DNA from: Falsiroseomonas oleicola
Lineage (GTDB): Bacteria > Pseudomonadota > Alphaproteobacteria > Acetobacterales > Acetobacteraceae
DNA: 64,000 nucleotides
NCBI RefSeq assembly: GCF_019029495.1
Contig: NZ_JAERQM010000001.1
Coordinates: 310,001 to 374,000, forward strand
Reading direction: 5' to 3'
The position numbers and the translations under genes were made by a program. This document shows positions 8,360 through 35,560 of the stretch, in pieces; position 1 is the stretch's first letter, and every line of letters starts with the position of its first letter. The notes below the pieces were generated by a model that saw only the letters and a program-made list of their open reading frames with translations, had not been told where the DNA came from and made no database searches.

Positions 8360-8471
8360 CTCAGGCGCCGGCGCGGCCTCCGGCCACTTGGCTACGCGAC
8401 ACTCGTCCCACTTGGCTACGCGACACTCGTCGCGGCGGCCATTCGGCCGCTCGCCCGCCACTGGCGGGCGC
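8360..8471 (-). repeat. multi-hairpin dispersed repeat, copy A
   Basis: Read on the minus strand, this has the same order of hairpins as 35472-35560. Stem 1 (8453-8469) is 7 bp with a 3-base loop. Stem 2 (8435-8450) is GCGGCC-GAAT-GGCCGC. Stem 3 (8419-8434) is CGCGAC-GAGT-GTCGCG. A conserved AGCCAAG spacer follows, then stem 4 (8373-8387), then an end reading GCCGGCGCCTGAG. Without an internal 24-nt duplication it is 88 nt, against 89 for the other copy. Stems 2, 3 and 4 differ between copies by paired changes that keep base pairing. It lies directly 3' of pyrB. Confidence 0.8.
8384..8431. repeat. perfect 2 x 24-bp tandem duplication inside repeat copy A
   Basis: Two adjacent identical 24-base units (8384-8407 and 8408-8431), each beginning CCACTTGGCTACGCGAC. 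The unit covers the AGCCAAG spacer and part of stem 3 of the hairpin repeat, so this copy carries one complete and one partial stem 3. The other copy in the window has a single unit. Confidence 0.95.
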
Positions 8472-8559
8472 CTGGCGTCTCAACTCATGCGCGGATGAAG
8501 CGCCCATACGAAAGCCGCGCCCGACCCATGGTCAGGCGCGGCCCCTGCGCGCAATCAGC

Positions 8560-8576
8560 GGGGGCGCGAGGCCCCC
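8560..8576 (-). terminator. hairpin downstream of rpmG
   Basis: GGGGGC-GCGAG-GCCCCC, a 6-bp all-GC stem beginning 8 bases past the rpmG stop on the minus strand. There is no clear U-run, so intrinsic termination is uncertain. Confidence 0.4.
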
Positions 8577-8583
8577 GGCCGGA

Positions 8584-8757
8584 TCACTTGATCTTGGACT
8601 CGCGGAACAGCACGTGCTTCCGGGCGACCGGGTCGTACTTCTTCATCTCGAGCTTGCCGGTCGCGTTCCGGGTGTTTTTCTTGGTCACGTAGAAGTAGCC
8701 CGTCGACGGCTCGGCCGTGCTGATGAGCTTAATCAGGATGGTATTGGCCTTGGCCAT
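8584..8757 (-). CDS. rpmG: 50S ribosomal protein L33
   Basis: 57 residues from ATG 8757 ([14 protein letters not shown]...). It contains the family signature [23 protein letters not shown] and the C-terminal [11 protein letters not shown]. The two CxxC zinc motifs found in some L33 proteins are absent, so this is the zinc-independent form. It is a single gene on the minus strand, interposed between pyrB and the pyrC homolog. Confidence 0.97.
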
Positions 8758-8867
8758 CTTACGAATTCCAGCACAGGAAACGGGTTGCGGGCAGACCTCA
8801 CGGTCCACCCGTCACAGGGGGGCGTTCTAGCCCGGTGGGGGCTCAGGTCAAGGGTTGATTGGGTGCA

Positions 8868-9848
8868 TCAGTTCGCCGTGGCGCCGCTGGCGCGTACCAC
8901 GGGCACCCATTCGGCCAGTTCGCGCCGCAGGAAAGCAGCGAATTCGGCCGGACTGCCCTCAGCGATCGGCGGCAGGTCCTGCTCCACCAGCCGGGCGGCG
9001 GTGGCCGGGTCCAGCAGGGCGGTGCGGATCGCGCCGTTCATCTTCGTGACGATCGCATCCGGAGTCCCCGCCGGGGCGAAGAGGCCGAACCAGGAATAGG
9101 CCTTGTAGCCGGGCAGCCCCGCCTGCGCCGCCGTTGGCACATCGGGCATCAAGCCGGAACGCGACTCGGTGGCCACCGCCAGGCAGCGCAGCTTGCCGGC
9201 GGCGTGATGCGGCGCGATCAGCGCCGGTGTGTCGAAGCACAGCGTCACCTGGCCGGCCAGCATATCCGCCAGCATCGGCGCGCTGCCGCGATAGGGCACA
9301 TGCGTCGCCTCCGCCCCGATGGCGTTCAGGAAAGCCACCGCGCCGATATGCGCCGACCCGCCGGCGCCGCCGGTGCCATAGGCATACTTCCCCGGATTGG
9401 CCTTCAGCAGCGCGATCAGCCCCGCCAGGTCGTTCACGCCCATACTGGGATGCACCGTGATGCAGATCGGCACCATCACGGTCGGCGCCACCGCCACGAA
9501 ATCCCGCTCCGGATCATAGGGCAGCCGATCACCATACAGCCCCACGGCCAGCACATGGGTGGAGATGGTGCCCATCAGGAAGACCGAGCCATCCCGCGGC
9601 CCCTTGGCCACGGCGTCGGAGCCGATGGTGCCCCCCGCCCCGCCCCGATTCTCGATCACCACCGGCTGGCCGAGAATCTGCTGCACCCGCGGCGCCAGCA
9701 GGCGGGTGGAGACATCCGTGCTGCCGCCGGCCGCGAACGGCACCACGATCCGCACCGGCCGGGTCGGCCAATCGGTCTGGGCCATGACGGTCTGGGCCGG
9801 GGCGGCGAGCAGGGCCGCGGGAACGGCGAGGAGGGATCGGCGGCGCAT
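8868..9848 (-). CDS. Bug/TctC-family tripartite tricarboxylate transporter binding protein
   Basis: 326 residues. The N-terminus MRRRSLLAVPAALLAAPAQT is a signal peptide ending near VMAQ. The mature part opens with the family signature WPTRPVRIVVPFAAGGSTDV, then VIENRGGAGGTIGSDAVAKG, YGTGGAGGSAHIG and VPYRGSAPMLADMLAGQV. Such proteins capture carboxylates in the periplasm for TctAB permeases. No tctA or tctB is near, so it is an orphan receptor, as in many species with expanded Bug families. The ligand is unknown. Confidence 0.92.
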   Translation of the reverse strand: MRRRSLLAVPAALLAAPAQTVMAQTDWPTRPVRIVVPFAAGGSTDVSTRLLAPRVQQILGQPVVIENRGGAGGTIGSDAVAKGPRDGSVFLMGTISTHVLAVGLYGDRLPYDPERDFVAVAPTVMVPICITVHPSMGVNDLAGLIALLKANPGKYAYGTGGAGGSAHIGAVAFLNAIGAEATHVPYRGSAPMLADMLAGQVTLCFDTPALIAPHHAAGKLRCLAVATESRSGLMPDVPTAAQAGLPGYKAYSWFGLFAPAGTPDAIVTKMNGAIRTALLDPATAARLVEQDLPPIAEGSPAEFAAFLRRELAEWVPVVRASGATAN

Positions 9849-10064
9849 TCGGGAACCTCATCCAGGGCGCAGGAACATATGCCACGATGCCCTTCGCGCC
9901 ATCGCCCCAATCAGCGCATCCGGGCTGTGGCGAGGCCGTGATCGCCTCGGTATCGTCCATCCGGCCGCATGCCGTGCCGCATAACGAGGCAGGACCACTC
10001 GATGGGCAAGGCGCTGCGTGAGGACAGGCCCGGCAGTCCACCCTTCCCTGGGCGATCCGGTTTC

Positions 10065-10553
10065 ATGAAGATCGCCCCGTCGGCGGTGCTGGCGATCCTG
10101 CTGGCCGCGCTGCCGGTCGGACTTCTGGGCCGGAGCATGGAGATCGCCTGGATCCGCCTCGTCGGAATCCAGGCCGAGGCGGTCATCGTCGGACAGCCCC
10201 GCAGCGTGCCCGCCAAAGGTGGCCCCGATTACTGGGCGGAACTGCACGTCGCGCTGCCCGATGGCCGCGATCTGCACGGCGCCGCATCCCACCCCATCCG
10301 TGCCGCGATGATCGCCCCCGCGAATGGCGCCCTCGCGCGCCGCGCGCCGCAGGCAGGGGACAGGTTGGCGATCCGCCTCCATGGGCGCGACCCCGTCCGG
10401 CTGACACCGGAAAGCGCCCTGGCCTACGGGCCCGCACCCTTCATCGAGGCGCTGGTCGTCATCCTTCTCACGCCACTTCTCTACCGGCTCTTCCGCAGTC
10501 ACACGCCGCTGAATACCGTCCGACGCAGGCCGGACAGAAACAGGGCAAGCTGA
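10065..10553 (+). CDS. two-TM membrane protein, possibly DUF3592-like
   Basis: 162 residues from ATG 10065. A hydrophobic N-terminal segment (APSAVLAILLAALPVGLLG) and a C-terminal one (FIEALVVILLTPLLYRLF) flank a soluble part of about 100 residues. That part contains GIQAEAVIVGQPRSVPAKGG, ELHVALPDGRDLHG and GDRLAIRLHGRDPVRLTPE. The plan (TM, small beta-rich domain, G-D-x-[LV] turn, TM) resembles DUF3592 proteins, but similarity is weak. The frame is open to 9969, but the residues before the first TM look non-coding. Function unknown. Confidence 0.6.
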   Translation: MKIAPSAVLAILLAALPVGLLGRSMEIAWIRLVGIQAEAVIVGQPRSVPAKGGPDYWAELHVALPDGRDLHGAASHPIRAAMIAPANGALARRAPQAGDRLAIRLHGRDPVRLTPESALAYGPAPFIEALVVILLTPLLYRLFRSHTPLNTVRRRPDRNRAS

Positions 10554-10622
10554 CGATGGAAGATCGCATGCCGGCCCGTGCCGCCCGATGGCGGGACTCG
10601 GCCGGCGGGCTATAAGCGCGAT

Positions 10623-11891
10623 ATGGCCGAGACCCTGATAACCCATGCCCGCCTGATCGACCCCGCCTCCGGCCTCGATGCGCCAGGCGCGCTGCTGGTG
10701 CGCGATGGCCTCATCCTGGACCACGGCAGCAACCTCGGCGTGCCGGATGGCGCGACGGTGGTGGATGCCGGCGGTGCCTGCCTCGCCCCGGGTCTGATCG
10801 ACCTGCGTGCCGCCCTCGGCGAGCCGGGCGCCGAGCACCGGGAGACCATCGCCTCCGCCGCCCAGGCCGCGGCGGCGGGCGGCATCACCACCCTCTGCGC
10901 CCTGCCCGACACGACGCCGGCCATCGACGACCCGGCGCTGGTCGCCTTCCTGGCCCGGCAGGCGAGCGCCAGCCTGACCATCCTGCCCTATGGCGCCGCC
11001 ACCCATGGCTGCGCCGGCAAGGATATTTCCGAGTTCGGCCTGCTGCGGGAGGCGGGGGCGGTTGCCTTCACCGATGGCAGGCGGGCGATCGGCCCGGCGC
11101 GGCTGATGCGCCTGGCGCTGTCCTATGCCCGCGCCTTCGGCAGTTTCATCGTGCAGCACCCGGAGGAGCCGAGCCTGGCCGGCGGCGGTGCCGCGACCGA
11201 GGGCGAGCGCGCCACCCGCATGGGCCTGGCCGGCATTCCGCCCGCCGCCGAATCGATGATGGTGGAGCGCGACATCGCGCTGGCCCGGTTGACTGGCGGC
11301 CATGTCCACTTCGCCCATGTCAGCACCGCCGCGGCGCTGGAGGCGATCCGGCGCGCCAAGGCGGAGGGGTTGCGCGTCACCTGCGACACGGCGCCGCCCT
11401 ATTTCGACCTGAACGAGACGGCGATCGGCGAATACCGCACCTATGCCAAGCTCTCCCCACCCCTACGCGTGGAGGCCGACCGGCTGGCGGTGGTGGCAGC
11501 GCTGGCGGATGGCACCATCGATGCCGTGGCCTCCGACCACCAGCCGCATGATGCCGACGACAAGCGCCTGCCCTTCGCCCAGGCCGAGCCCGGCGGCACC
11601 GGCCTCGCCACGCTGCTGGCGGTGACGCTGGCGCAGGTGCATGGCGGCAGGCTGGGCCTGCTGGAGGCGCTCGGCCTGATGACGGCCAGGCCCGCGGCGC
11701 TGCTGGGGCTGGACAGCGGCGTGCTGAAGAAGGGTGCGCCGGCCGACCTGGTGCTGTTCAGCCTGGAACGCGGCTGGCAGGTCCATTCCGGAAAGCTGCC
11801 CGGCAAGGCCCAGAACACGCCCTTCGACGGGCGGGCGCTGGAGGGCCGTGTGCTCGGCACCTGGAAAGCCGGGCGGAGGGTGTTCGGGTGA
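10623..11891 (+). CDS. pyrX: dihydroorotase-like, non-catalytic PyrC homolog (PyrX type)
   Basis: 422 residues from ATG 10623. The fold is a class I dihydroorotase amidohydrolase: APGLIDL near residue 60, GEPGAEHRETI, GGITTLCALPDTTPAIDDP and ASDHQPHDADDKRLPF. Key metal ligands are missing. The usual HxH after the GLIDL strand is RAA (residues 62-64), and the usual PHH motif reads PPYF. This matches the inactive dihydroorotase homologs known, for example, from Pseudomonas putida, which assemble with PyrB as scaffold. An active PyrC should lie elsewhere. The stop overlaps the GTG of plsY. Confidence 0.88.
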   Translation: MAETLITHARLIDPASGLDAPGALLVRDGLILDHGSNLGVPDGATVVDAGGACLAPGLIDLRAALGEPGAEHRETIASAAQAAAAGGITTLCALPDTTPAIDDPALVAFLARQASASLTILPYGAATHGCAGKDISEFGLLREAGAVAFTDGRRAIGPARLMRLALSYARAFGSFIVQHPEEPSLAGGGAATEGERATRMGLAGIPPAAESMMVERDIALARLTGGHVHFAHVSTAAALEAIRRAKAEGLRVTCDTAPPYFDLNETAIGEYRTYAKLSPPLRVEADRLAVVAALADGTIDAVASDHQPHDADDKRLPFAQAEPGGTGLATLLAVTLAQVHGGRLGLLEALGLMTARPAALLGLDSGVLKKGAPADLVLFSLERGWQVHSGKLPGKAQNTPFDGRALEGRVLGTWKAGRRVFG

Positions 11892-12478
11892 ATACCGGCC
11901 TGCTGATCGCCGCGGCGCTGGGCTATCTGCTGGGCTCCGTGCCCTATGGGCTGCTGCTGACCAAGGCGGCCGGGCTGGGCGATGTGCGCGCCATCGGCTC
12001 CGGCAGCATCGGCGCCACCAATGTGCTGCGCACCGGCAACAAGAAGCTGGCGGCGGCAACGCTGCTGCTGGATGCGGCGAAGGGCGCCGTGGCCCTGCTG
12101 CTGGCCCGCTGGATTTTTGGCGAGGATGCGGCGCTGCTGGCGGGCTTCTGCGCGCTGCTGGGGCACACCTTTCCCATCTGGCTCGGTTTTCGGGGCGGCA
12201 AGGGCGTGGCCACGGGGGCTGGCGTCATTCTCGCCGCCCAGCCCGGCCTTGGCCTGCTGCTGCTGGGCGTCTGGCTGGCCATGGCGGTGCTGACGCGCAT
12301 CTCCTCGCTCAGCGCGCTGACCGTCTGCGCCCTGGCGCCGGTCGTGGCGGCGCTGTCGGGCGACTGGCGGCTGGCCGGCTTCTGCCTGGGCGTGGCCCTG
12401 CTGATCGCCATCCGCCACCACGCCAATATCCGCCGCCTGATCGCCGGCACCGAACCCAAGATCGGCCGCAAGGCCTGA
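11888..12478 (+). CDS. plsY: glycerol-3-phosphate acyltransferase
   Basis: 196 residues, starting GTG at 11888 and overlapping the preceding stop. PlsY transfers an acyl group from acyl phosphate to glycerol 3-phosphate in the inner membrane, the first step of phosphatidic acid synthesis. The three cytoplasmic motifs are visible: LGSVPYGLLLTK, GSGSIGATNVLRTGNKK and LGHTFPIWLGFRGGKGVATG. Five hydrophobic segments can be drawn. It runs into dprA with one base between stop and ATG, a common arrangement in this family of genomes. Confidence 0.95.
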   Translation: MNTGLLIAAALGYLLGSVPYGLLLTKAAGLGDVRAIGSGSIGATNVLRTGNKKLAAATLLLDAAKGAVALLLARWIFGEDAALLAGFCALLGHTFPIWLGFRGGKGVATGAGVILAAQPGLGLLLLGVWLAMAVLTRISSLSALTVCALAPVVAALSGDWRLAGFCLGVALLIAIRHHANIRRLIAGTEPKIGRKA

Positions 12479-12479
12479 G

Positions 12480-13589
12480 ATGCGCCCGGCGGAGGCCCTG
12501 GCGCGGCTCAGCCTCGCGCGCACCGACGGCATCGGTCCTGCAACATTCCGCCGTCTGATCGCACGCCACGGCAATGCGGAGGCTGCCATGGCCGCCCTGC
12601 CCCAGCACGCCGCCCGCAGCGGCCGCAGCTTCACAGCGCCCCCGCGGGACGCCGTGGCGCGGGAGATGGAGGCGGTGGCCCGGATGGGCGGCAGCTTCCT
12701 GTTCCTGGATGACCAGGGCTACCCGCCGCTGCTCGCCTTGCTGGAGGATGCGCCGCCCGTCCTGGCCCTGCTGGGACCGCCCGAGGTGCTGCGCCGCCGC
12801 CAGGTCGGCGTGGTCGGCGCCCGCGCCGCCTCCGCCGCCGGGCGGCGGGTGGCGGAGGAGTTGGCGGCGGGGCTGTGTTCGGCCGGCATCGCCGTCACCT
12901 CTGGCCTCGCCAGGGGAATCGACGCGGCGGCGCATCTGGGCGCGCTGAATGTGCAGGGCCGCACGGTGGCCGTGGTCGCCGGCGGGCTCGACATGCCCTA
13001 TCCGCCGGAGAATGCCGCGCTTCAGGGCCGCATCGCGGCCGAGGGCGGGGTGGTGGTCAGTGAGGCGCCGCTCGGCACCGCGCCCCAAGCCCGCCACTTC
13101 CCCCGCCGCAACCGCATCGTCGCCGGGCTGGTGCTGGGGCTGGTGGTCGTGGAAGCGGCGCAGCGGTCCGGCAGCCTCATCACCGCCCGCCTGGCCCTGG
13201 AAGCCGGGCGGGAGCTGTTCGCGGTGCCCGGCAACCCGCTGGACCCGCGGGCACGGGGTGGCAATGATCTGATTCGCCAGGGCGCTCATCTGACCGAAAC
13301 GGCGGAGGATGTGCTGGCCAACCTGCCCGCCCAGCCGCTGGTCCTGCCGCTTTTCAGCCTGGCCCCGCTTGCGGATAAAATAACTGCACCCGCCCCAGCG
13401 GCCGCGCCACCGCCGGAATCGGTGGGACAAGTGCTTGAGTTGATTGGCACGACACCGGTTGCCGTTGACGATCTGGTCCGCCGCTGCCAGCTATCAGCGC
13501 CATCCATCCAGGCGATCCTGCTTGACCTGGAGTTGTCGGGGCTGGTGGAAACCCTGCCTGGCAACCGGGTCGTCCGGTCGGTTACGTGA
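12480..13589 (+). CDS. dprA: DNA processing protein DprA
   Basis: 369 residues. DprA binds incoming single-stranded DNA and loads RecA during natural transformation. The Rossmann-like core shows VGVVGARAASAAGRR, SGLARGIDAAAHLGAL, VVAGGLDMPYPPEN, FPRRNRIVAGL, QRSGSLITARLALEAGRE and the VPGNP motif. A C-terminal winged-helix part follows a Pro/Ala linker (about 265-300) and ends LSGLVETLPGNRVVRSVT. It is followed after about 50 bases by topA, a conserved dprA-topA pairing. Confidence 0.95.
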   Translation: MRPAEALARLSLARTDGIGPATFRRLIARHGNAEAAMAALPQHAARSGRSFTAPPRDAVAREMEAVARMGGSFLFLDDQGYPPLLALLEDAPPVLALLGPPEVLRRRQVGVVGARAASAAGRRVAEELAAGLCSAGIAVTSGLARGIDAAAHLGALNVQGRTVAVVAGGLDMPYPPENAALQGRIAAEGGVVVSEAPLGTAPQARHFPRRNRIVAGLVLGLVVVEAAQRSGSLITARLALEAGRELFAVPGNPLDPRARGGNDLIRQGAHLTETAEDVLANLPAQPLVLPLFSLAPLADKITAPAPAAAPPPESVGQVLELIGTTPVAVDDLVRRCQLSAPSIQAILLDLELSGLVETLPGNRVVRSVT

Positions 13590-13638
13590 CCGCACGGAAT
13601 TTCGGGCGGGAAAAGCGCGCGAAGGCGAACAGATAAAG

Positions 13639-16431
13639 ATGCCTGATGTCGTCGTGGTCGAGAGCCCCGCAAAGGCCAAGACCATCAACAAGTACCTCGG
13701 CGACGACTTCACCGTCCTCGCCTCCTTCGGCCATGTCCGCGACCTGCCCGCCAAGGATGGCAGCGTCCGGCCGGATGAGGATTTCGCCATGGACTGGGAA
13801 GCGGATGAGCGGGGCGACCGTCAGGTTGCCGCCATCGCCAAGTCCCTGAAGGGCGCCCGCCGCCTGTTCCTGGCCACCGACCCGGACCGGGAAGGGGAGG
13901 CGATTTCCTGGCATGTGAAGGACATGCTGGCCCGCCGCGGCGTCCTCAAGGGCGTCGAGGTGCATCGCATCACCTTCAACGAGATCACCAAGCGCGCCGT
14001 GCAATACGCCGTGGCGCATCCGCGCGACCTCGATGTGCCGCTGATCGACGCCTATCTGGCACGCCGCGCGCTGGACTATCTGGTGGGCTTCAACCTCTCG
14101 CCCGTGCTGTGGCGAAAGCTGCCCGGCAGCCGCTCCGCCGGCCGGGTGCAGTCGGTTGCCCTGCGCCTGATCTGCGAGCGCGAAGCCGAGATCGAAGCCT
14201 TCCGGGCGCGCGAATACTGGACGGTGGAAGGCCGTTTCGCGACCCCCTCCGGCGCCGGCTTCTCCGCCCGCCTGACCCATCATGAGGGCAGGAAGCTCGA
14301 TCAGTTCGACCTGCCGAACGAGGCGACCGCGATGGCCGCCAAGGCCGCGGTCGAGGCGGGCAAGTTCAGCGTGGCTTCCGTCGAGAAGCGCCGCACCAAG
14401 CGAAACCCGCCACCGCCCTTCACCACCTCCACCCTGCAGATGGAGGCGTCCCGCAAGCTGGGCATGGGCGCGCAGGCGGCGATGCGGGTGGCGCAGCAGC
14501 TGTATGAGGGCACCGATATCGGCGGCGAGACCGTCGGCCTCATCACCTATATGCGAACCGACGGCGTGCAGATGGCGCGGGAGGCGATGTTCGCCATCCG
14601 CGACCATGTGAAGGAGGCCTTTGGCGACAACTACGTACCGGGCGCGCCGCGCGAATACTCCTCCAAGGCCAAGAACGCCCAGGAGGCGCACGAAGCCATT
14701 CGCCCAACGGACGTCTCCCGCACGCCGGAACAGGTGGCCCGCTTTCTCGATGACCGGCAGCGCAAGCTCTATGAGCTGATCTGGAAGCGCGCCGTCGCCA
14801 GCCAGATGCAATCTGCTGAGATCGACCAGACGGCGGTGGAGCTGGTGGAGCCCTCGGGCAAGACCAAGCTGCGCGCCACCGGCTCCGTCATCGCCTTCGA
14901 CGGCTTCCTGCGCCTGTACCGGGAGGATGAGGACGACCGCGCGGCCGATGCGCGCGCCGGTATCGCCACTGCCGGGCCGGAACCCGACGACGAGAGCAAG
15001 ACGCTGCCGCCGATGCGAGAGGGGGATGCGGCAAAGTCCGGCCCCGTCACCGCCAGCCAGCATTTCACCCAGCCGCCGCCGCGTTTCTCCGAAGCGACAC
15101 TGGTCAAGCGGCTGGAGGAGCTGGGGATCGGCCGGCCCTCCACCTATGCCTCGATCCTCCAGGTCCTGCAGGACCGGGACTATGTGAAGCTGGACAAGCG
15201 GCGCTTCGTGCCGGAGGACCGCGGCCGGCTGGTCACCGCCTTCCTGGTCGCCTTCTTCGAACGCTATGTCGATACCGGCTTCACCGCCGGGCTCGAGGAG
15301 AAGCTGGACGATATCTCGGGCGGCCGGGCCGATTGGCGCGCGGTGATGCGCGCCTTCTGGGAGGACTTCTCCAAGGCCATCTCCTCGACCAGCGAGCTGA
15401 CCATCAGCGACGTCATCGACGCGCTGGACGAGGATCTGGGCCCCCACTTCTTCCCCGCCCGCGCCGATGGCGTGGACCCGCGCGGCTGCCCGGCCTGTTC
15501 CGGCGGCCGGCTGGGCCTGCGGCTGGGACGGACGGGCGCCTTCATCGGCTGCTCCAACTATCCCGAATGCCGCTACACCCGGCCCCTGGTCGCGCCGGGG
15601 GCGGAGGCCGATGGCGCCGCCGGCTTCAATGAGGGCCAGCGCGAGCTTGGCGTCGATCCGGCGACCGGCAAGAACATCAGCCTGCGGCGCGGCCCCTACG
15701 GCCTCTACGTCCAGCTCGGCGAGGAAACCCTCGACGAGAAGGGCAAAAAGGTCAAACCGCGCAGGGCCAGCCTGGCCAAGGGCATGGACCCGGATGGGCT
15801 GACGCTGGAACGCGCCCTCGCGCTGCTCTCCCTGCCCCGCATCGTCGGCGTGCATCCGGAGACGGCGGAGGAGATCGTCGCGGCCATCGGGCGCTTCGGC
15901 CCCTATGTGAAGATGGGGCAGTTGTTCAAGTCGCTGGACCCGGATGACGACGTTCTGGTCATCGGCCTGAACCGCGCCATGGCGTTGCTGGCGGATGTGA
16001 AGCCGCGCGGGCGGGCGCTGGGGGATCATCCCTCCGGCGGCAATGTCGATGTGCGGCGCGGGCGCTTCGGGCCCTTCGTCATGCATGGCAGCCGCGTCGC
16101 CTCCATGCCGCGGACCATGGATTTCGACACGGTGACGCTGGAGGAGGCGGTGAAGCTGCTGGCCGAGAAGGGCAAGGAGCTGCCGCCGCTGACCAAGGGC
16201 AAGAAGGGCGCGAAGAAGGCGCCGGCGAAGAAGGCCGCTGCCCCGGCGGGCGAGGAGGCCGCGCCGAAGGTGAAGGCCTCCGCCAAGGCCAAGGCCCCCG
16301 CGAAGCCGAAGGCCGCTGTCGCATCGACCGCCAAGCCCAAGGCGGCGGCAAAGCCCAAGGCCGCGGCCAAGCCGAAGACCGCCGCGAAGCCCGCGGCCAA
16401 AAAGCCGGCGGCGCGCAAGGCCGCCGGCTGA
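13639..16431 (+). CDS. topA: DNA topoisomerase I
   Basis: 930 residues from ATG 13639 (MPDVVVVESPAKAKTINKYLG). Type IA topoisomerase that relaxes negative supercoils. The Toprim domain has VVESPAKAKT and DPDREGEAISWH. The active-site tyrosine lies in LITYMRTDG, and PGSRSAGRVQSVALRLI is present. After the core, one zinc-ribbon (CPACSGGRL ... CSNYPEC, about residue 615) is followed by topoisomerase C-terminal repeats (GRFGPFV). The last ~75 residues are a Lys/Ala/Pro tail likely to bind DNA nonspecifically. The frame is open upstream to 13444, inside dprA, but the VVESPAK start is standard. Confidence 0.97.
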   Translation: MPDVVVVESPAKAKTINKYLGDDFTVLASFGHVRDLPAKDGSVRPDEDFAMDWEADERGDRQVAAIAKSLKGARRLFLATDPDREGEAISWHVKDMLARRGVLKGVEVHRITFNEITKRAVQYAVAHPRDLDVPLIDAYLARRALDYLVGFNLSPVLWRKLPGSRSAGRVQSVALRLICEREAEIEAFRAREYWTVEGRFATPSGAGFSARLTHHEGRKLDQFDLPNEATAMAAKAAVEAGKFSVASVEKRRTKRNPPPPFTTSTLQMEASRKLGMGAQAAMRVAQQLYEGTDIGGETVGLITYMRTDGVQMAREAMFAIRDHVKEAFGDNYVPGAPREYSSKAKNAQEAHEAIRPTDVSRTPEQVARFLDDRQRKLYELIWKRAVASQMQSAEIDQTAVELVEPSGKTKLRATGSVIAFDGFLRLYREDEDDRAADARAGIATAGPEPDDESKTLPPMREGDAAKSGPVTASQHFTQPPPRFSEATLVKRLEELGIGRPSTYASILQVLQDRDYVKLDKRRFVPEDRGRLVTAFLVAFFERYVDTGFTAGLEEKLDDISGGRADWRAVMRAFWEDFSKAISSTSELTISDVIDALDEDLGPHFFPARADGVDPRGCPACSGGRLGLRLGRTGAFIGCSNYPECRYTRPLVAPGAEADGAAGFNEGQRELGVDPATGKNISLRRGPYGLYVQLGEETLDEKGKKVKPRRASLAKGMDPDGLTLERALALLSLPRIVGVHPETAEEIVAAIGRFGPYVKMGQLFKSLDPDDDVLVIGLNRAMALLADVKPRGRALGDHPSGGNVDVRRGRFGPFVMHGSRVASMPRTMDFDTVTLEEAVKLLAEKGKELPPLTKGKKGAKKAPAKKAAAPAGEEAAPKVKASAKAKAPAKPKAAVASTAKPKAAAKPKAAAKPKTAAKPAAKKPAARKAAG

Positions 16432-16432
16432 G

Positions 16433-20163: not shown

Positions 20164-20173
20164 ATCACCGCGA

Positions 20174-23036: not shown

Positions 23037-23037
23037 C

Positions 23038-24969: not shown

Positions 24970-25077
24970 GCTGTTTCCTCCATTGGCCCTGTTCGGGCGA
25001 TCGGAGGATGGCATGCGGTCGCTACGGGCGCGCAACCCCCGCGTGCATCATCCCGAAGGCGTGATGATCGCTCGCCG

Positions 25078-26262: not shown

Positions 26263-26339
26263 GGCGGTGGGGCTCCCTCGGTTGGGTCCATCTAACCCCC
26301 AGCATTGCCTGCCGCCAATGAGTAACCCTTGTGGAATTG

Positions 26340-26350
26340 ATAAGCGTTAT
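26340..26350. promoter_or_regulatory. candidate operator between sgaA and the FAD/Fe-S oxidoreductase
   Basis: ATAA-GCG-TTAT, an 11-bp AT-rich palindrome in an otherwise GC-rich divergent intergenic region. It could be a regulator site shared by both genes. There is no known consensus to match it to. Confidence 0.3.
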
Positions 26351-26403
26351 AGATCGGACAGCCGTGCCAACCCGCGCTACATCGTGGGCATGGGAGACGC
26401 CGC

Positions 26404-29319: not shown

Positions 29320-29888
29320 CCCAGCCCCAAGACATCCTCGCCTTCTGGTTCTCCGAAGGCCCCGACACCGCCCGCAAGGCCTGGTTCCTCAAGGATGACG
29401 CCTTCGACGCCAGCATCCGCGCCCAGTTCGGCGACCTGCTGGTCCCGGCCCGCGAAGGCGCCCTTGATTCCTGGGCCGAAACCCCGGACGGCGCCCTCGC
29501 CCTCCTCCTCATCCTCGACCAGTTCCCCCGCAACCTGCACCGCGGCCACGCCGACGCCTTCGCCAGCGACTCCCACGCCCTCACCATCGCCCGCCAGACC
29601 GTCCTCACCCGCCGCTTCGACCTCGCCGTCACCCCCACCCAACGCAGCTTCCTCTACCTCCCCTTCGAACACAGCGAAGCCATGGCCGACCAGAACCTGT
29701 CCGTCGCCCTCTTCGAAGGCCTGCGCGACCACCCCGCCATGGCCGCCCCCAACGGCGTCATCGACTACGCCTGGCGCCACCGCATCGTCATCCAACGCTT
29801 CGGCCGCTACCCCCACCGCAACACCCCCCTCGGCCGCCCCTCCACACCCGCCGAACAAGCCTGGCTCGACGCGGGCGGGGGGTTCTGA
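29316..29888 (+). CDS. DUF924 family protein
   Basis: 190 residues; the ATG at 29316 overlaps the preceding stop (ATGA). It starts TQPQDILAFWFSEGPDTARKAWFLKDDAFD, the DUF924 hallmark, and contains ALLLILDQFPRNLHRGHADAF and RSFLYLPFEHSE. The fold is an all-helical TPR-like bundle of unknown biochemical role. It is followed by a palindromic intergenic element. Codon use is strongly C-biased at third positions (Pro/Ser/Ala runs in other frames), but this frame clearly matches the family. Confidence 0.9.
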   Translation: MTQPQDILAFWFSEGPDTARKAWFLKDDAFDASIRAQFGDLLVPAREGALDSWAETPDGALALLLILDQFPRNLHRGHADAFASDSHALTIARQTVLTRRFDLAVTPTQRSFLYLPFEHSEAMADQNLSVALFEGLRDHPAMAAPNGVIDYAWRHRIVIQRFGRYPHRNTPLGRPSTPAEQAWLDAGGGF

Positions 29889-29907
29889 GGGACGGCACTG
29901 GGTGAAT

Positions 29908-30118
29908 TGCAGGAGGGGCGCTGCCCCTCCCGCACCCTCCCCGCCAGGAGGCAGTGGCCTCCTGGACCTCAGGACCTTGAAGGGAAATGGAGAGGGGCCA
30001 GCGGTACCGCATGTTCAGCGGTCCCTCCGGCCCCTCTCCATTTCCCTTCATGAATCAAAGGGTTCCAAGGGTCCACTGACCCTTGGCAGGGGGTGCAGGG
30101 GGACAGCGTCCCCCTGCG
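29908..30118. repeat. 211-bp palindromic element with five perfect hairpins
   Basis: Stems: 29912-29930 (8 bp), 29944-29965 (9 bp), a 21-bp inverted repeat (29979-29999 with 30029-30049), 30065-30086 (9 bp) and 30095-30117 (10 bp). The right arm, reverse-complemented, aligns with the left along its length: GCAGGGGGACGCTG against GCAGGAGGGGCGCTG, and CCAAGGGTCAGTGG against CCAGGAGGCAGTGG. The whole is thus one imperfect inverted repeat of ~100-nt arms, each holding two hairpins. It lies between the convergent DUF924 and oxyR genes and may terminate both. Confidence 0.85.
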
Positions 30119-30133
30119 AACCACCCAGCGCCA

Positions 30134-31045
30134 TCACCCCAGTGCCACCGCCACGGTCGGGGCCAGTCCGGCAAATTCGGCGGCGCGGGGGCTGCGGGGG
30201 CGCCAGGCGAGGGCGAGCATGCGGCCGGGGGTGGCGGCGCCGGAGAGGCGTCGGATGTCGACGGGGGCGTCGCCGAGGATGCCGCCGTGGATGGCGAGTT
30301 GGGGCAGCAAGGTGACGCCCAGGCCGCCGGCGACCATTTGCACCAGGGTGTGGAGGCTGGTGGCGGAGAAGCCTTCCTCGGCGGTGGCGGCCAGGTTGCG
30401 GGGCAGGCCGCAGGCGGCTTCGGCGTGGTCGCGCAGGCAGTGGCCGTCTTCCAGCAGCAGCAGGCGTTCGCCGGACAGGGCGGAGATGGGCACCGGGTCG
30501 CGGGCCGCGAGGTGGTGGCCGCGCGGCAGGGCCAGGTGGAAGGCGTCCTCGGCCAGCGGCAGGGTTTCCATGTTGCCGGCGGCCGGAAGGGCGAGAATCA
30601 GAAGGTCGAGCTTGCCGGCATCGAGGCCGGCGACCAGACGCTCCGTCAGATCCTCCCGTAGCCAAAGGCGCAGGCGGGGATAGGCCTGGCGCAGGGCGGG
30701 CATCAGGCGCGGCAGCAGGAAGGGGCTGATGGTGGGGATGATGCCCAGGCGCAGCGGGCCGGAGAGTGGGTCGCGCGCGATCGCCGCCGTCTCCGCCACC
30801 GCTTCCAGCGCCGCCAAGGCGGTGCGGGCGCGGGCGACGAGTTCGAGGCCGAGCGGCGTGAAGACGGGGCGCTTCACGGCCGTGCCGCGTTCCAGCAGCC
30901 CGGCGGCGAGCTGGCGTTCCAGCGCGATCAGGCCGGCGGAGAGGGTAGATTGCGTGACCGCGCAGGCGGCGGCGGCGCGGCCGAAATGCCCGTGATCCGC
31001 CAGGGCCACCAGGTAGCGGAGCTGTTGCGGGCTGGGCAGGAGCAT
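30134..31045 (-). CDS. oxyR: LysR-family peroxide sensor OxyR
   Basis: 303 residues. The N-terminal LysR helix-turn-helix (FGRAAAACAVTQSTLSAGLIALERQL) is followed by the effector domain. The redox pair lies in LLLLEDGHCLRDHAEAAC, C203 and C212, spaced as E. coli C199/C208 in the near-identical LEDGHCLRD context. It should form an intramolecular disulfide with peroxide and activate target promoters. It is divergent from ahpC across 125 bases, the expected target. I could not fit a full OxyR consensus in that gap. Confidence 0.93.
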   Translation of the reverse strand: MLLPSPQQLRYLVALADHGHFGRAAAACAVTQSTLSAGLIALERQLAAGLLERGTAVKRPVFTPLGLELVARARTALAALEAVAETAAIARDPLSGPLRLGIIPTISPFLLPRLMPALRQAYPRLRLWLREDLTERLVAGLDAGKLDLLILALPAAGNMETLPLAEDAFHLALPRGHHLAARDPVPISALSGERLLLLEDGHCLRDHAEAACGLPRNLAATAEEGFSATSLHTLVQMVAGGLGVTLLPQLAIHGGILGDAPVDIRRLSGAATPGRMLALAWRPRSPRAAEFAGLAPTVAVALG

Positions 31046-31170
31046 GATCGATGGAACCGATTGAAACCTGGAAAACTATTCATTGGCACATGATGCTGCA
31101 CTGCGCCATATGACAGTCGTTCTGGCGTATGCTGCGCCGCGACATAGCCAAACCTCGAGGAGTGCCGAAC

Positions 31171-31746
31171 ATGCTGACCGTTGGCGATAAGTTTCCCGCC
31201 TTCAAGCTGACCGCCGTCAAGGGCGGCAAGGAGGGCCTGATGGGCCCGGGCAAGTCCTTCACCGAGGTGACGGAGACCACCGACGCCGGCAAGTGGAAGG
31301 TCGTGTTCTTCTGGCCGAAGGACTTCACCTTCATCTGCCCGACCGAGATCGCCGCTTTCGGCAAGCTGAACGGCGAGTTCGCCGACCGTGACACCGTGCT
31401 CTACGGCGCCTCCACGGACAGCGAGTTCGTGCACCTGAACTGGCGCGTCTACAACGAGGACATCCGCAACCTCGAGATCCCGATGCTCGCCGACACGAAG
31501 CGCGAGCTGTCCGAGGCGCTCGGCATCCTCGACAAGAATGAGGGCGTGCCGCTGCGCGCGACCTTCATCGTGGACCCGGAGGGCACGATCCAGTGGGCCG
31601 CCGTGAACGGCCTGAATGTCGGCCGCAACCCACAGGAAGTGCTGCGCGTGCTCGACGCGTTGCAGACGGATGAGCTGTGCCCCTGCAACTGGGAGAAGGG
31701 CAAGGACGTCCTGAACCCGCAGGCGCTGTTCGAGAAGGCGGCCTGA
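31171..31746 (+). CDS. ahpC: alkyl hydroperoxide reductase AhpC (2-Cys peroxiredoxin, AhpD-linked type)
   Basis: 191 residues from ATG 31171, with GAGGAG at 31157-31162. It is thiol peroxidase subunit AhpC. The peroxidatic cysteine is C56 (DFTFICPTEIAAF). Two C-terminal cysteines, C170 and C172 (DELCPCNW), match the three-cysteine form known from Mycobacterium tuberculosis, where AhpD rather than AhpF is the reductant. ahpD follows after 118 bases. OxyR is encoded divergently upstream, so peroxide induction is expected. The frame is open to 31129, but family members start MLTVGDKFP. Confidence 0.96.
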   Translation: MLTVGDKFPAFKLTAVKGGKEGLMGPGKSFTEVTETTDAGKWKVVFFWPKDFTFICPTEIAAFGKLNGEFADRDTVLYGASTDSEFVHLNWRVYNEDIRNLEIPMLADTKRELSEALGILDKNEGVPLRATFIVDPEGTIQWAAVNGLNVGRNPQEVLRVLDALQTDELCPCNWEKGKDVLNPQALFEKAA

Positions 31747-31763
31747 TTTCAGCCGCTGACCGA

Positions 31764-31779
31764 GGGGCCGGAAGGCCCC
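31764..31779 (+). terminator. hairpin 1 between ahpC and ahpD
   Basis: GGGGCC-GGAA-GGCCCC, a 6-bp stem with a GNRA-type tetraloop, 17 bases after the ahpC stop. It may attenuate read-through to ahpD or protect the ahpC mRNA end. Confidence 0.45.
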
Positions 31780-31805
31780 GAGGTTGCAGGTGCTGACGGC
31801 GGGAT

Positions 31806-31824
31806 GGGGGGCTTCCGGCCCCCC
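31806..31824 (+). terminator. hairpin 2 between ahpC and ahpD
   Basis: GGGGGGC-TTCCG-GCCCCCC followed by TTT: a 7-bp stem and a short T-run. With hairpin 1 it suggests lower expression of ahpD than of ahpC from a shared promoter. Confidence 0.45.
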
Positions 31825-31864
31825 TTTCCAATCCACGTGCCCCCCTCCCATGAGGTCCCCCACC

Positions 31865-32416
31865 ATGTCGCTCGAATCCATCCGTGGCCGGCTGCCCGAC
31901 TATGCCAAGGACCTGAAGCTGAACCTCGGCTCCCTGGCCAGCGAGCCGGTGTTGAACCAGCAGCAGCGCGCCGGCACCTTCGTTGCTTCCGCCATCGCCA
32001 GCCGCAATGCCGAGCTGACCGCGGCGCTGATCGCCGAATTCGGCCCGCAGCTTTCGCCGGAGGCGCTGACCGCCGCCAAGGCCGCCGCCGCGATCATGGG
32101 CATGAACAATGTCTATTACCGCTTCACCCACCTGGTGGGCGGCGACTACGCCAGCATGCCGGCGAAGCTGCGCATGAACGTCATGGCCAAGCCGGGCGTG
32201 GAGAAGGTGGATTTCGAGCTGTGGTCGCTCGCCGTCTCCGCCATCAATGGCTGCGGCATGTGCATGGAAAGCCATGAGAAGATCGTGCTGCATGGCGGGC
32301 TGAGCAAGGAACAGGTCCAGGCCGCCGTGCGCATCGCCGCCGTGGTGCATGCCACCGCCGCGACGCTGGATGCCGAGGATGCCTTGGCTGGCGGGGTCCA
32401 GGCCGTCGCCGCCTGA
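31865..32416 (+). CDS. ahpD: alkylhydroperoxidase AhpD
   Basis: 183 residues from ATG 31865 ([21 protein letters not shown]). AhpD is a lipoyl-coupled adaptor that reduces AhpC. The active-site CxxC-H is C130, C133 and H137 ([12 protein letters not shown]). [11 protein letters not shown] and [11 protein letters not shown] are typical of the helical family. It is paired with the AhpD-dependent form of AhpC just upstream. The last seven codons and the stop belong to a 21-nt unit that is repeated in tandem after the gene. Confidence 0.96.
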
Positions 32417-32461
32417 GACCAGGCCGTCGCCGCCTGAGACCAGGCCGTCGCCGCCTGAGAC
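32399..32461 (+). repeat. 3 x 21-bp tandem repeat spanning the 3' end of ahpD
   Basis: Three identical 21-base units (32399-32419, 32420-32440, 32441-32461; CAGGCCGTCGCCGCCTGAGAC), then degenerate copies to about 32500. Each unit carries the ahpD stop codon TGA in the same frame, so the gene has serial in-frame stops. Replication slippage is the simple explanation. Confidence 0.95.
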
Positions 32462-32585
32462 AGGCAGAGATCGTCGCCGCCTGAGACAGGAACAGATCGC
32501 CGCCGTCAGAGCCGGGAAAGGGCTGCCGCCTTCCATGGCAGCCCTGCATACCTTTCGGAAAGGCATGCACGCCTAACCTGCGCGC

Positions 32586-34130
32586 ATGAGCCCAGCCCGC
32601 CACCGAATCCTCGGCGACCGAGAGCGCTTCGTTGCCTTCGCTTTCGCCGCGGCGGATTTGCTGGTGGAGGTGGCGCAGGACGGCCGTATCGGCTTCGCCG
32701 CTGGCGCTTTCCGCGCCCGGCTTGGCAAGCCCCCGGAAAGCTTCGTGGGCACCGACCCGGTTCGCCTGGTGGCGCCGGAGGATCGGCGCCTGTTCGCCAC
32801 CGCGCTGGCCATGCTGCCGGGCCGCGGCCGGCTGGCGCCCACCGCCTTCCGGCTGGCGGATGGCGACCACACGCCCTTCTCGGTCTCCGGCCTGCATATC
32901 CTGTCTTCCGATTCCTCGGCCCGGCTTTGCCTCGCCTTCTCCCCCCTCCCCGCCGCCCCGGATCTCCGCCCCGCCGACGCTGCCGCCCTGCTGCGGGAGG
33001 CTGAGCAGCGACTGCGCGCCGGGACGGCCGAACACCTCACACTCATCGAGACCGGCAACGCCATCTGTTCGGCCACGACGGAACGCGTGGAGCAGGCCCT
33101 GCGGGAGGAAGCGGGGGCGGAGGCCCTGGCCGCACAGCTCGGCCCAGGCCGCTATGGTGTGCTGGCCGGGGAGGATCAGGCCCTGCCCGATCTCGGCGCC
33201 CTGGCGGCGAGGCTGGAGCGGCTTCTGGGGACACAGGCCGGGGCGCTGCTGTCGGTGACGCAGGTCGAGCTGGCGGGCGGTGCGCTCACGGCCTCCCAGG
33301 CCGCGCGCGCGCTGCGCCATGGGCTGGGCGCCTTCGCCCGCTTCGGGGCGGCGGGGCTGCGCGATGCCGGCTTCGCCCAGGGTCTGGGCGGCGTGGTGGC
33401 ACGGGTCACCGAACGGGCCGGGGCGCTGCGACGAATAATCGCGGATCGCCGCTTCCGGCTGGAATTCCAGCCCATCGTCGACCTCGGCACCCGCCAGGTG
33501 CATCACCATGAGGCGCTGCTGCGCTTGGCCCCAGGTGCCCTGGCGCCAGGCGAGGGGCCGCAGGAATTCGTCTCCCTCGCCGAGACGATCGGGCTGACGG
33601 AGGAGCTGGACCTCGCCGTGGCCAGCATGGCGCTCGCCGCGGCCCATGCGGTGCCGGAGGGCCGGCATGTGGCCTTCAATCTGTCCGGCCTTTCGGTGCA
33701 GTCAGCCGGCTTTCGCAAGCGGCTGCTGGCGGCGCTGGACCGCGACCCGCGCGGCACCCGGCGGGTGATGGTGGAGCTGACGGAAAGCGTCGAGATCGAG
33801 GATGAGGAAGCCGCCGCCACCACGCTGCGTGGCTTGCGCAAGCGCGGCGTGCCGGTCTGCATCGATGATTTCGGCGCAGGCGCCGCCGCCTTCCGCTATC
33901 TGAAGGCCTTCCCCACCGACTATGTGAAGGTCGATGGCAGCTATGTGCAGGCGGCGCTGACCAGCGAACGCGACCGCAGCTTCGTCGCCGCCATGGTCGA
34001 CCTGTCGCTGGCCGTCGGCGCCCAGGTGGTGGCCGAGCGTATCGAAACGGAAGCCGCCGCCCAGGCGATGCAGGCGCTGGGCGTGCATTACGGCCAGGGC
34101 TGGCTGTTCGGGAAGCCGGGGCCGCTGTAG
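32586..34130 (+). CDS. EAL-domain c-di-GMP phosphodiesterase with PAS-like N-terminus
   Basis: 514 residues. Residues ~15-120 look like a PAS sensor (VAQDGRIGFAAGAFRARLG). Residues ~130-280 may be a degenerate GGDEF remnant, with no GG[DE]EF. The EAL domain from ~285 is complete: EALLR at 309-313, the metal-site Glu in MVELTESVEI, IDDFGAGAAAFRYLKAF, VKVDGSYV and ERIETEAAA, then YGQGWLFGKPGPL. It should hydrolyse c-di-GMP. The start ATG follows the ahpD tandem repeats. No TM segment is seen, so it is probably cytoplasmic. Confidence 0.9.
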   Translation: MSPARHRILGDRERFVAFAFAAADLLVEVAQDGRIGFAAGAFRARLGKPPESFVGTDPVRLVAPEDRRLFATALAMLPGRGRLAPTAFRLADGDHTPFSVSGLHILSSDSSARLCLAFSPLPAAPDLRPADAAALLREAEQRLRAGTAEHLTLIETGNAICSATTERVEQALREEAGAEALAAQLGPGRYGVLAGEDQALPDLGALAARLERLLGTQAGALLSVTQVELAGGALTASQAARALRHGLGAFARFGAAGLRDAGFAQGLGGVVARVTERAGALRRIIADRRFRLEFQPIVDLGTRQVHHHEALLRLAPGALAPGEGPQEFVSLAETIGLTEELDLAVASMALAAAHAVPEGRHVAFNLSGLSVQSAGFRKRLLAALDRDPRGTRRVMVELTESVEIEDEEAAATTLRGLRKRGVPVCIDDFGAGAAAFRYLKAFPTDYVKVDGSYVQAALTSERDRSFVAAMVDLSLAVGAQVVAERIETEAAAQAMQALGVHYGQGWLFGKPGPL

Positions 34131-34143
34131 CGCTGCCCTCCCC

Positions 34144-35424
34144 CTACCCGCCATAGCCCGAGATACGCGGCAGCCACAGCGCGATGTCGGGGAAGGCGAT
34201 CAGCATCAGGGTGCCGAAGGCCAGCATCAGCATATAGGGCAGGATGGAACGATTCACCTCGCCCAGCGGCGCGCCGGTGATGGCCTTGATGACCACCAGG
34301 TTCAGCGCCACGGGTGGGGAGATCAGCGCCATCTCCAGGCTCAGCGTCAGCAGCACGCCGTACCAGACCTTGTCGATGCCGAGCACGTCGAGCAGCGGCA
34401 GGATGGCCGGCATGGTCAGCAGGATGATGGAAAAGCTCTCCAGCACCAGCCCCAGCAGGAACAGCAGCACCATCATGGCGATCAGGAAGCCGGTGCGCGA
34501 CAGGCCGAGATCGGCGACGAGCTGCGTCAACTGCTGCGGGACCAGCAGCTTGGTCAGCATGTAGCCATAGATCGCCGCGCCGGCGATGATCAGCAGCAGC
34601 ATGGCGGAGGTCCGCGTCGCCTCCTGCACCCCATGCACCAGGTCACGCCAGGTCAGGGTACGGTAGATCACCGCGGCGATGAACAGGGCATAGAGCGTGC
34701 CGGTGCCGGCCGCCTCGGTGGCCGTGAAGACGCCGAGGTAGATGCCGCCCAGCACGAAGATCGGCAGCGACAGCGACCAGCCGGCCCGGGCCAGGGCCAG
34801 ATGCGCGGCCTCCGGCGGCGGGTCATCGGCCGGCACCACGGCGCGGCCCTCGGTGATGAAGCAATAGGCGGCGAACATCAGCGCCATCAGCAGGCCAGGA
34901 ACCAGCCCGGCCAGGAACAGCGCGGCGACCGAGGTCTCGGTCACATAGGCATAGAGCACCATGGGCGCCGAGGGCGGGATCAGGATGCCCAGCGTGCCGC
35001 CGCCCGCCACCACGCCGAAGGCGCCCTTGCGGGACATGCCGTAGCGCAGCATCTGCGGAATCGCGATCTTGCCGATGGTCAGCGCAGTGGCGACGGAGCT
35101 GCCGCTGATCGCGGCGAAGATGGTGCAGGCGGCGACGGTGGCGATACCCACGCCACCCCGCACCCGCCGCAGCAGCACGAAGGCGGCGTTGTACAGGTCG
35201 TCGACGACCTTCCCGCGCACCATCACATGCGCCATCAGCATGAACAGCGGGATGGCCACCAGCAGATAGCCGTCCAGCTTGCCCACCACCATCTCGCCCA
35301 GCGCCGGCACCGCGCCCTCGACCTGGAACAGGATGGCGAGCGGCAGCACGAACAGCGCCGCGAACATCGGCATGCCGAGCCAGAGCAGGGCGATCAGCGC
35401 GCCGAGCAGCAGGAAGAAGGTCAC
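34144..35424 (-). CDS. dctM: TRAP transporter large permease (DctM/SiaM type)
   Basis: 426 residues, almost wholly hydrophobic, consistent with about 12 membrane segments. Typical elements are MPMFAALFVLPLAILFQVEG, YLLVAIPLFMLMAHVMV, ISGSSVATALTIGKIAIPQML, GTLGILIPPSAPMVLYAY and the late PPVALNLVVIKAI. It is the Na+-coupled permease subunit taking ligand from the binding protein encoded two genes upstream. It converges on the EAL gene. A repeat copy and a hairpin fill the 169 bases between it and the small permease gene. Confidence 0.95.
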   Translation of the reverse strand: MTFFLLLGALIALLWLGMPMFAALFVLPLAILFQVEGAVPALGEMVVGKLDGYLLVAIPLFMLMAHVMVRGKVVDDLYNAAFVLLRRVRGGVGIATVAACTIFAAISGSSVATALTIGKIAIPQMLRYGMSRKGAFGVVAGGGTLGILIPPSAPMVLYAYVTETSVAALFLAGLVPGLLMALMFAAYCFITEGRAVVPADDPPPEAAHLALARAGWSLSLPIFVLGGIYLGVFTATEAAGTGTLYALFIAAVIYRTLTWRDLVHGVQEATRTSAMLLLIIAGAAIYGYMLTKLLVPQQLTQLVADLGLSRTGFLIAMMVLLFLLGLVLESFSIILLTMPAILPLLDVLGIDKVWYGVLLTLSLEMALISPPVALNLVVIKAITGAPLGEVNRSILPYMLMLAFGTLMLIAFPDIALWLPRISGYGG

Positions 35425-35471
35425 GCGCCTCGTACTCCGTTGGCTATCCCGAATCTCATTGATCGCAACCT

Positions 35472-35560
35472 GCGCCCGCCGCAGGTGGGCGAGCGCCCGA
35501 ATGGGCGCCGCGGCTTGTGCCGCGCAGCCAAGCCCGCGGATGCGGGCGCCGGCGCCTGAG
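35472..35560 (+). repeat. multi-hairpin dispersed repeat, copy B
   Basis: Four consecutive stems: 35474-35490 (7 bp, one G-T wobble), 35493-35508 (GCGCCC-GAAT-GGGCGC), 35509-35524 (CGCGGC-TTGT-GCCGCG) and, after an AGCCAAG spacer, 35532-35547 (GCCCGC-GGAT-GCGGGC). It ends GCCGGCGCCTGAG. It matches 8360-8471 (minus strand) along its length, with compensatory differences in stems 2, 3 and 4. It lies between the two TRAP permease genes, in the orientation opposite to their transcription, as copy A does relative to pyrB. Confidence 0.8.

What the first reader, a model, noticed from the sequence alone, without database searches (positions are those of the whole stretch)
8360..35560. An ~89-nt multi-hairpin repeat in two copies, with compensatory base changes in its stems
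Copies at 8360-8471 (minus) and 35472-35560 (plus) share the order stem 1, stem 2, stem 3, AGCCAAG spacer, stem 4, GCCGGCGCCTGAG end. Stem 2 is GCGGCC/GGCCGC in one and GCGCCC/GGGCGC in the other with the same GAAT loop. Stem 3 is CGCGAC/GTCGCG versus CGCGGC/GCCGCG. Stem 4 also changes on both sides. The remaining imperfect pairs (one in each copy) are G-U wobbles only when both copies are read on the element strand, and mismatches on the other. That suggests selection at the RNA level on that strand. In both cases the element lies just 3' of a gene (pyrB; dctQ) and antisense to it. I know no named family that fits, and I saw no third copy here.
Basis: seen in the sequence. Interest (0 to 1): 0.82.

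Follow-up and report, generated by a model that had tools for sequence, protein, structure and literature searches.

The report
Multi-hairpin mobile element at stop codons
The two look-alike hairpin clusters belong to a large family, apparently not yet described, of small mobile DNA elements in Roseomonas-type and related bacteria that often sit exactly in the stop codons of genes, with hairpins that keep their pairing while their letters change.

Summary
Both copies are real (82 and 90 bits). The same genome holds 119 matches at E<=1; all 14 sampled congeners carry the family, and it recurs patchily across Alphaproteobacteria. Stems covary strongly: 99.0% of 1562 cells paired, 19 of 26 pairs changed on both sides, 0 of 500 shuffles as high.

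It is not best read as a strand-specific RNA: over 195 distinct copies G-U is 93 and A-C 75 (p=0.19; smaller sets lean to G-U), and copies between tandem genes point either way, 26 to 25.

Full copies have TACC...GGTA ends flanked by a 3-bp TNA duplication (identical in 19 of 26; shuffle mean 6.4, max 14). The TNA is often a neighbouring gene's stop codon, which the duplication regenerates. Relatives lack insertions at the same stops or carry different ones. So: a MITE-like element with a modular hairpin core, kept paired at DNA level by templated correction, selection or both. No mobilising transposase, Rfam match or description in the open papers searched was found.

The parts
8359..8471 (-). 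element copy 1, four-hairpin core
   Evidence: R2 82.3 bits, E 3e-12; sequence
8452..8470 (-). copy 1 stem 1 CGCCCGCC/GGCGGGCG
   Evidence: sequence
8435..8450 (-). copy 1 stem 2 GCGGCC-GAAT-GGCCGC
   Evidence: sequence
8419..8434 (-). copy 1 stem 3 CGCGAC-GAGT-GTCGCG
   Evidence: sequence
8384..8431 (-). 24-bp tandem duplication inside copy 1 (explains its extra length)
8373..8387 (-). copy 1 stem 4 GTGGCC-GGA-GGCCGC (one U-G pair)
   Evidence: sequence
8349..8351 (.). TNA target position of copy 1 = stop codon TGA of pyrB; the terminal repeat next to it is decayed here; congener G007 shows TGA-TACC at this place. The left end of copy 1 was not located
   Evidence: inference by comparison
7413..8351 (+). 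pyrB, neighbour of copy 1
   Evidence: Pfam OTCace_N/OTCace (on the frame from 7341); start from the gene finder
35472..35561 (+). element copy 2, four-hairpin core
   Evidence: R2 89.5 bits, E 1.8e-13; sequence
35473..35491 (+). copy 2 stem 1 (one G-U pair)
   Evidence: sequence
35493..35508 (+). copy 2 stem 2 GCGCCC-GAAT-GGGCGC
   Evidence: sequence
35509..35524 (+). copy 2 stem 3 CGCGGC-TTGT-GCCGCG
   Evidence: sequence
35532..35547 (+). copy 2 stem 4 GCCCGC-GGAT-GCGGGC
   Evidence: sequence
35562..35583 (+). copy 2 right-arm (fifth) hairpin CGTGGATCG-GTCA-CGATCCACG
   Evidence: sequence; like modules in L031, L034 and L056
35584..35593 (+). decayed right terminal repeat of copy 2 (related copies read ...GGGATTTGGTA). 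The left end of copy 2 was not located
   Evidence: inference by comparison
35594..35596 (.). triplet CTA in the TNA place = stop codon TAG of dctQ (minus strand)

Best explanation
It is a family of small non-autonomous (MITE-like) DNA elements. A full copy of the commonest own-genome type is about 140-190 bp: a 3-bp TNA target duplication, a terminal inverted repeat (TACCA...TGGTA), a core of four hairpins joined by constant linkers (GA, AGCCAAG, GCC(C)GGCGnnTGAGG), a right-arm hairpin, and the second terminal repeat. SHOWN: terminal repeats and TNA duplication in the copies that keep their ends, presence/absence between relatives, frequent placement on stop codons, loss of terminal repeats in many copies while the core stays paired, and covariation without a significant strand bias. 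INFERRED: a DDE-type transposase supplied in trans acts at TNA. Because TAA and TGA are TNA, an insertion into a stop codon regenerates the stop and is harmless, so such insertions, and insertions between convergent genes, survive. After the ends decay, the core hairpins stay paired through DNA-level events (templated correction between the two arms during replication) and/or selection on the folded DNA or on transcripts of either strand. The two window copies are old members inserted at the pyrB and dctQ stops.
For: 119 genome matches at E<=1; own genome and all 14 sampled congeners positive. TSD: of 323 loose core matches, 29 have both exact tips; left T in 29 of 29, right A in 26 of 29, TNA identical in 19 of 26 vs shuffle mean 6.4, max 14 of 5000. 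Stop codons: 19 of 34 left-tip copies have a predicted stop at the TNA of one end vs 43 of 210 noncoding TNA in the window (Fisher 6e-5); stop-to-core distances on the left peak at 5 nt (13) and 25 nt (9) of 68, the tip-to-core lengths of the two main types. Context: 42 convergent, 51 tandem, 6 divergent, 0 inside genes of 99 copies. Empty sites: at own insertions L125 and L120, G001, G002 and G007 show no element after the stop. Opposite-orientation insertions at one stop codon in own and G007 (L110/L385). The pyrB stop is followed by an element in 3 of 15 species, with differing copies. Mismatches near symmetric; at orthologous sites 18 two-sided vs 4 one-sided pair changes.
Against: No autonomous partner: only two PF01609 fragments in the genome; their 2.1-kb loci hold one lone TACCANCG match and no right tip. 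Only 29 of 323 loose core matches show both exact tips, and both window copies have decayed ends, so for most copies the insertion model rests on position and comparison. TSD letters differ in 7 of 26 TNA pairs. 2 of 34 left tips were called inside a predicted gene. G001 lacks the pyrB copy while G002 and G007 have ones with different right ends, so history at that site is unclear. The stop-codon and junction controls are one 64-kb window. Some subsets lean to G-U. What keeps the stems paired is not settled.
Confidence: 0.8

Rival explanations
1. A strand-specific structured RNA (3'-UTR or antisense regulatory RNA) whose fold is selected on the element strand.
For: Very strong covariation with constant loops and linkers; unpaired core positions 357 of 414 identical between orthologous copies vs 144 of 266 in the flank before the core (biased, relatives were picked by core matches); 93 of 99 copies lie 3' of at least one gene; G-U lean in the stricter set (46 vs 26, p=0.02) and own genome (37 vs 23, p=0.09).
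Against: Whole set G-U 93 vs A-C 75 (p=0.19); 26 sense vs 25 antisense in tandem contexts; copies come and go at sites; terminal repeats and TSD; no Rfam match.
Confidence: 0.1
2. A sub-version of the best explanation: dead MITE copies whose hairpins are kept perfect purely by replication template switching, with no function at all.
For: No significant strand bias of mismatches; 18 two-sided vs 4 one-sided changes over 182 stem pairs in 8 ortholog comparisons, not all independent; 225 of 266 two-sided cells are G-C to C-G swaps (my tally), not the G-U route of RNA genes (PMC8794818, section 8: 61% of instantaneous changes there could go via G-U). Local hairpins persist while terminal repeats decay (by eye).
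Against: Loops and linkers, which template switching would not preserve, are also conserved between orthologs (biased sample) and recur between genera; no inverted form of the GAA(N) loop among the 14 commonest stem-2 loops. High GC alone also favours G-C/C-G swaps.
Confidence: 0.35
3. REP/BIME elements mobilised by a RAYT (Y1 transposase).
For: High copy number, extragenic, palindromic, tandem arrays.
Against: No Y1_Tnp (PF01797) in the genome, while the search rings in 5 of 14 control genomes including E. coli; no constant GTAG/CGTC tag before stem 2 or stem 4, the two feet checked (tags as named in PMC3733652); TNA duplication and terminal inverted repeats.
Confidence: 0.03
4. Chance similarity of GC-rich palindromes.
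For: GC of the window is 70%.
Against: 119 matches; 41 tip matches vs 5 for the reversed control; covariation 0 of 500 shuffles and collapse when arms are slid.
Confidence: 0.01

Closest known systems
Bacterial MITEs in general (review PMC10969869, passages seen)
   Same: Short, terminal inverted repeats, target duplication, many intergenic copies, stable folds.
   Different: GC-rich (76% and 82% for the window cores) rather than the AT-rich form the review calls typical; modular four-hairpin core with constant linkers and covarying stems; 3-bp TNA duplication that often falls on stop codons; no partner transposase found.
ERIC / RUP / Correia repeats (from recall)
   Same: High-copy imperfect palindromes near gene ends in transcribed regions.
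   Different: Those duplicate TA (recalled); here TNA, with different sequence and architecture. No direct comparison was run.
REP/BIME (PMC3733652, passages seen)
   Same: Extragenic palindromes in high copy, also in tandem arrays.
   Different: No tag tetranucleotide at the two feet checked, no Y1 transposase in the genome; longer; terminal repeats and TSD. PMC3733652 reports CGTC repeats missing from Acetobacteraceae.
Integron attC sites (works-like analogy, from recall)
   Same: Constant unpaired bases with variable, compensated stems, read as folded DNA.
   Different: No gene cassettes seen, different site sequence; not tested further.

Membership tests
MITE | terminal inverted repeats | tested here: met
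   TACC/GGTA tips; 41 right-tip matches vs 5 control; 29 of 323 loose core matches with both exact tips. The window copies' own ends are decayed
MITE | target-site duplication | tested here: met
   TNA identical in 19 of 26, shuffle max 14
MITE | short | tested here: met
   143 bp including both TSDs in L100; tip distances of 113-192 bp printed for other core-bearing copies
MITE | non-coding | tested here: inconclusive
   one copy (L100) read in six frames: no frame exceeds 47 codons, but one is open throughout, so stops alone do not decide
MITE | insertion polymorphism between relatives | tested here: met
MITE | autonomous element with the same ends | tested here: inconclusive
   two PF01609 fragments without a pair of such ends; lone tip L285 lies at the stop of an Obg-type GTPase gene, and the other three ORFs scanned there match no Pfam family
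REP/RAYT | RAYT (Y1_Tnp) in genome | tested here: not met
   0 matches, control rings in 5 of 14
REP/RAYT | GTAG/CGTC-type tag at hairpin foot | tested here: not met
   feet of stems 2 and 4 only, 195 copies
Rfam RNA family | covariance-model match | tested here: not met
   0 at gathering score in the window; 0 at E<=1 in four loci
IS5-type (TNA-duplicating) insertion sequences | 3-bp TNA duplication | tested here: met
   the link of TNA to that group is recalled
IS5-type (TNA-duplicating) insertion sequences | DDE transposase between the ends | tested here: not met
   the copies seen are too short to hold one; so not filed as an IS

The most novel reading that the evidence does not exclude
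A widespread cassette-like mobile DNA element that favours stop codons and whose four-hairpin core is kept by the host after the ends die, because the folded DNA (or a transcript of either strand) does something at gene ends, such as bidirectional termination or 3'-end protection. Its hundreds of copies then record compensatory stem turnover by DNA template switching in bacteria.
Probability: 0.3. Interest if true: 0.8.

Novelty: new variant of a known kind. Interest (0 to 1): 0.62.

Why it matters
How stems change both sides together is an old puzzle, recently argued to involve replication template switching (PMC8794818, abstract and section 8 read). Here are many natural hairpin copies, some at orthologous sites and in both orientations, which lets DNA-level correction and RNA-level selection be told apart. 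It also suggests a simple way to insert without harm: duplicate a triplet that is itself a stop codon. It warns that covariation alone, even very strong, does not prove a strand-specific RNA.

Tried and rejected
RNA-strand selection by the G-U argument: not upheld on 195 copies (93 vs 75). A stricter set of 122 copies gave 46 vs 26 (p=0.02; distinct stems 33 vs 19, p=0.07) and the own genome alone 37 vs 23 (p=0.09); congeners 28 vs 24 and other genera 28 vs 28 show none. The looser set probably holds some rows that are not true copies. Rfam: nothing. Plasmid and phage records: no match with one 151-bp query. REP/RAYT: rejected. Source IS via PF01609 and via a lone right tip, L285: none found. 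Coding function: one full copy read in six frames; nothing over 47 codons, one frame open.

Literature: ten searches of the open-access library with terms for Roseomonas, Magnetospirillum, Azospirillum, Rhodospirillales, MITE, palindromic and extragenic repeats, stop codon and template switching. No description of this element seen in the listings; subscription papers are not held. Papers opened: PMC3733652 and PMC10969869 (passages), PMC8794818 (abstract, outline, section 8).

Limits: relatives' copies for one search were chosen by core matches, so core conservation there is overestimated; one row's 'post' flank (L062) is really coding (without it both flanks together are 218 of 365), which also makes the Fisher test printed there unsafe, and in two rows the segment that replaces stem 3 is counted as unpaired. 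One search used 99 of 119 hits: three weak matches (L146, L153, L155) and repeat views of the same copies were dropped, the rest not fetched. In one search, 8 ortholog pairs from 7 own copies were used of 15 groups viewed; one search uses 8 comparisons with stems copied. Site absence was judged by eye over 200-270 nt; one congener contig (L318) ends early. A4 rows were picked and aligned by the model.
Full report
OBSERVATION. Copy 1 (8359-8471, minus) and copy 2 (35472-35561, plus) read as described. Copy 1 carries a 24-bp internal tandem duplication. A model built from 63 matches, themselves found with a first model of four genome copies, scores the window copies 82.3 and 89.5 bits; the next best place in the window scores 20.7. 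Copy 1 lies between pyrB and a convergent small gene (rpmG by recall of its sequence); copy 2 lies between dctQ and dctM (Pfam for pyrB, dctQ and dctM).

A FAMILY. The same genome has 119 matches at E<=1, 107 at E<0.01, with 150 candidates scored, some in tandem arrays of about 105-bp period. The own genome and all 14 sampled congeners match, as do 3 of the 44 other genomes in that sample. An even draw over the class gives 18 of 289, own genome included, with at most 15 candidates scored per genome, so a lower bound. No Rfam match.

ANATOMY. Constant parts: GA between stems 1 and 2, loop GAA(T/C/G) of stem 2, loop NN(A/G)T of stem 3, AGCCAAG, loop GGA(T) of stem 4, and GCC(C)GGCGnnTGAGG. Variable parts: the stems. 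Extra hairpin modules are found after stem 3, in the loop of stem 2, or before TGAGG; a copy of about 40 bp keeps only the ends (L283). Full copies extend to TACC...GGTA ends. Of 323 loose core matches, 29 have both exact tips; the flanking triplet is TNA on both sides in 26 and identical in 19 (shuffle mean 6.4, max 14). That is a target-site duplication.

STOP CODONS. Of 34 own-genome copies with a left tip, 19 have a predicted stop codon at the TNA of one end, against 43 of 210 noncoding TNA in the window (Fisher 6e-5; the 19 is my tally of 13 left and 6 right rows, where 2 of 34 tips also fell inside a predicted gene). Where the left neighbour's stop faces the core (68 copies), distances peak at 5 and 25 nt (13 and 9 copies), the tip-to-core lengths of the two main types, also in copies with decayed ends. 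For copy 1 the pyrB stop TGA (8349-8351) stands in the TNA place, and congener G007 reads TGA-TACC there. For copy 2 the dctQ stop (CTA on plus, 35594-35596) follows GGCA. The left ends of both window copies were not located.

MOBILITY. At pyrB, 3 of 15 species show an element, with different right ends (by eye). At the own L125 insertion the three nearest relatives are empty, while three other species carry other subtypes just after the same stop; at L120 the same three relatives are empty (by eye). At L110, own and G007 carry elements in opposite orientation at the same TGA. These facts fit repeated insertion.

RNA OR DNA. Covariation is very strong: 99.0% of 1562 cells paired, 19 of 26 pairs changed on both sides, 266 such cells, 0 of 500 shuffles as high, and it collapses when arms are slid (rows were picked and aligned by the model, so this leans to the structure). 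But mismatches show no significant strand bias: G-U 93, A-C 75, other 116 of 4927 pairs (p=0.19). Against this, a smaller, stricter set leans to G-U (46 vs 26, p=0.02) and so does the own genome (37 vs 23, p=0.09), while congeners (28 vs 24) and other genera (28 vs 28) do not. Both strands fold better than shuffles. Orientation to genes is even, 26 vs 25, and 42 of 99 copies are between convergent genes, 6 between divergent ones, none inside genes; in the window 9 of 54 junctions are convergent and 9 divergent. Two-sided changes are mostly G-C/C-G swaps (225 of 266 cells, my tally), and in 8 comparisons of orthologous copies 18 pairs changed on both sides and 4 on one. This is what correction of one arm from the other during replication would give, a process argued for RNA genes in PMC8794818 (abstract and section 8 read). 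Against a purely neutral account, unpaired core positions are 86% identical between orthologous copies, near coding DNA (88%) and above the flank before the core (54%), though the relatives were chosen by core matches.

VERDICT. A family of MITE-like elements that I found no description of; a new variant of a known kind. Why the core stays folded is the open and testable question.

Noticed in passing
L283 (G000:C1:1274332): A minimal derivative of about 40 bp that keeps only the two terminal repeats and no hairpin core.
   Followed up: no
L134, L137, L103 (4450-4568), L159; also L162: A subtype in which stem 3 is replaced by a longer GCGC(C/A)CAGACC... segment before AGCCAAG or AGGCAAG; conserved between own genome and G001 at two sites.
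   Followed up: partly
L017 and L434: A similar nested hairpin module (GACGGGTGCCC...GGGGTCCCGGAA) sits in the stem 2 loop of copies in two species.
   Followed up: no
L048/L049 (G000:C12:757655-757853): Two identical copies in tandem, followed by a run of N: perhaps an array the assembly could not cross.
   Followed up: no
G045 contigs C31, C50, C7: Contigs start about 16 bases before high-scoring copies with repeated scores, so assemblies may break at this repeat; G045 and G077 look like recent expansions where a source transposase might be found.
   Followed up: no
window 8511-8542 (-): A hairpin followed by T residues downstream of the small minus-strand gene looks like its own terminator, seen by eye.
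   Followed up: no
window 45148-45235 (+): Weak model match (20.7 bits, E 0.065), probably chance.
   Followed up: no
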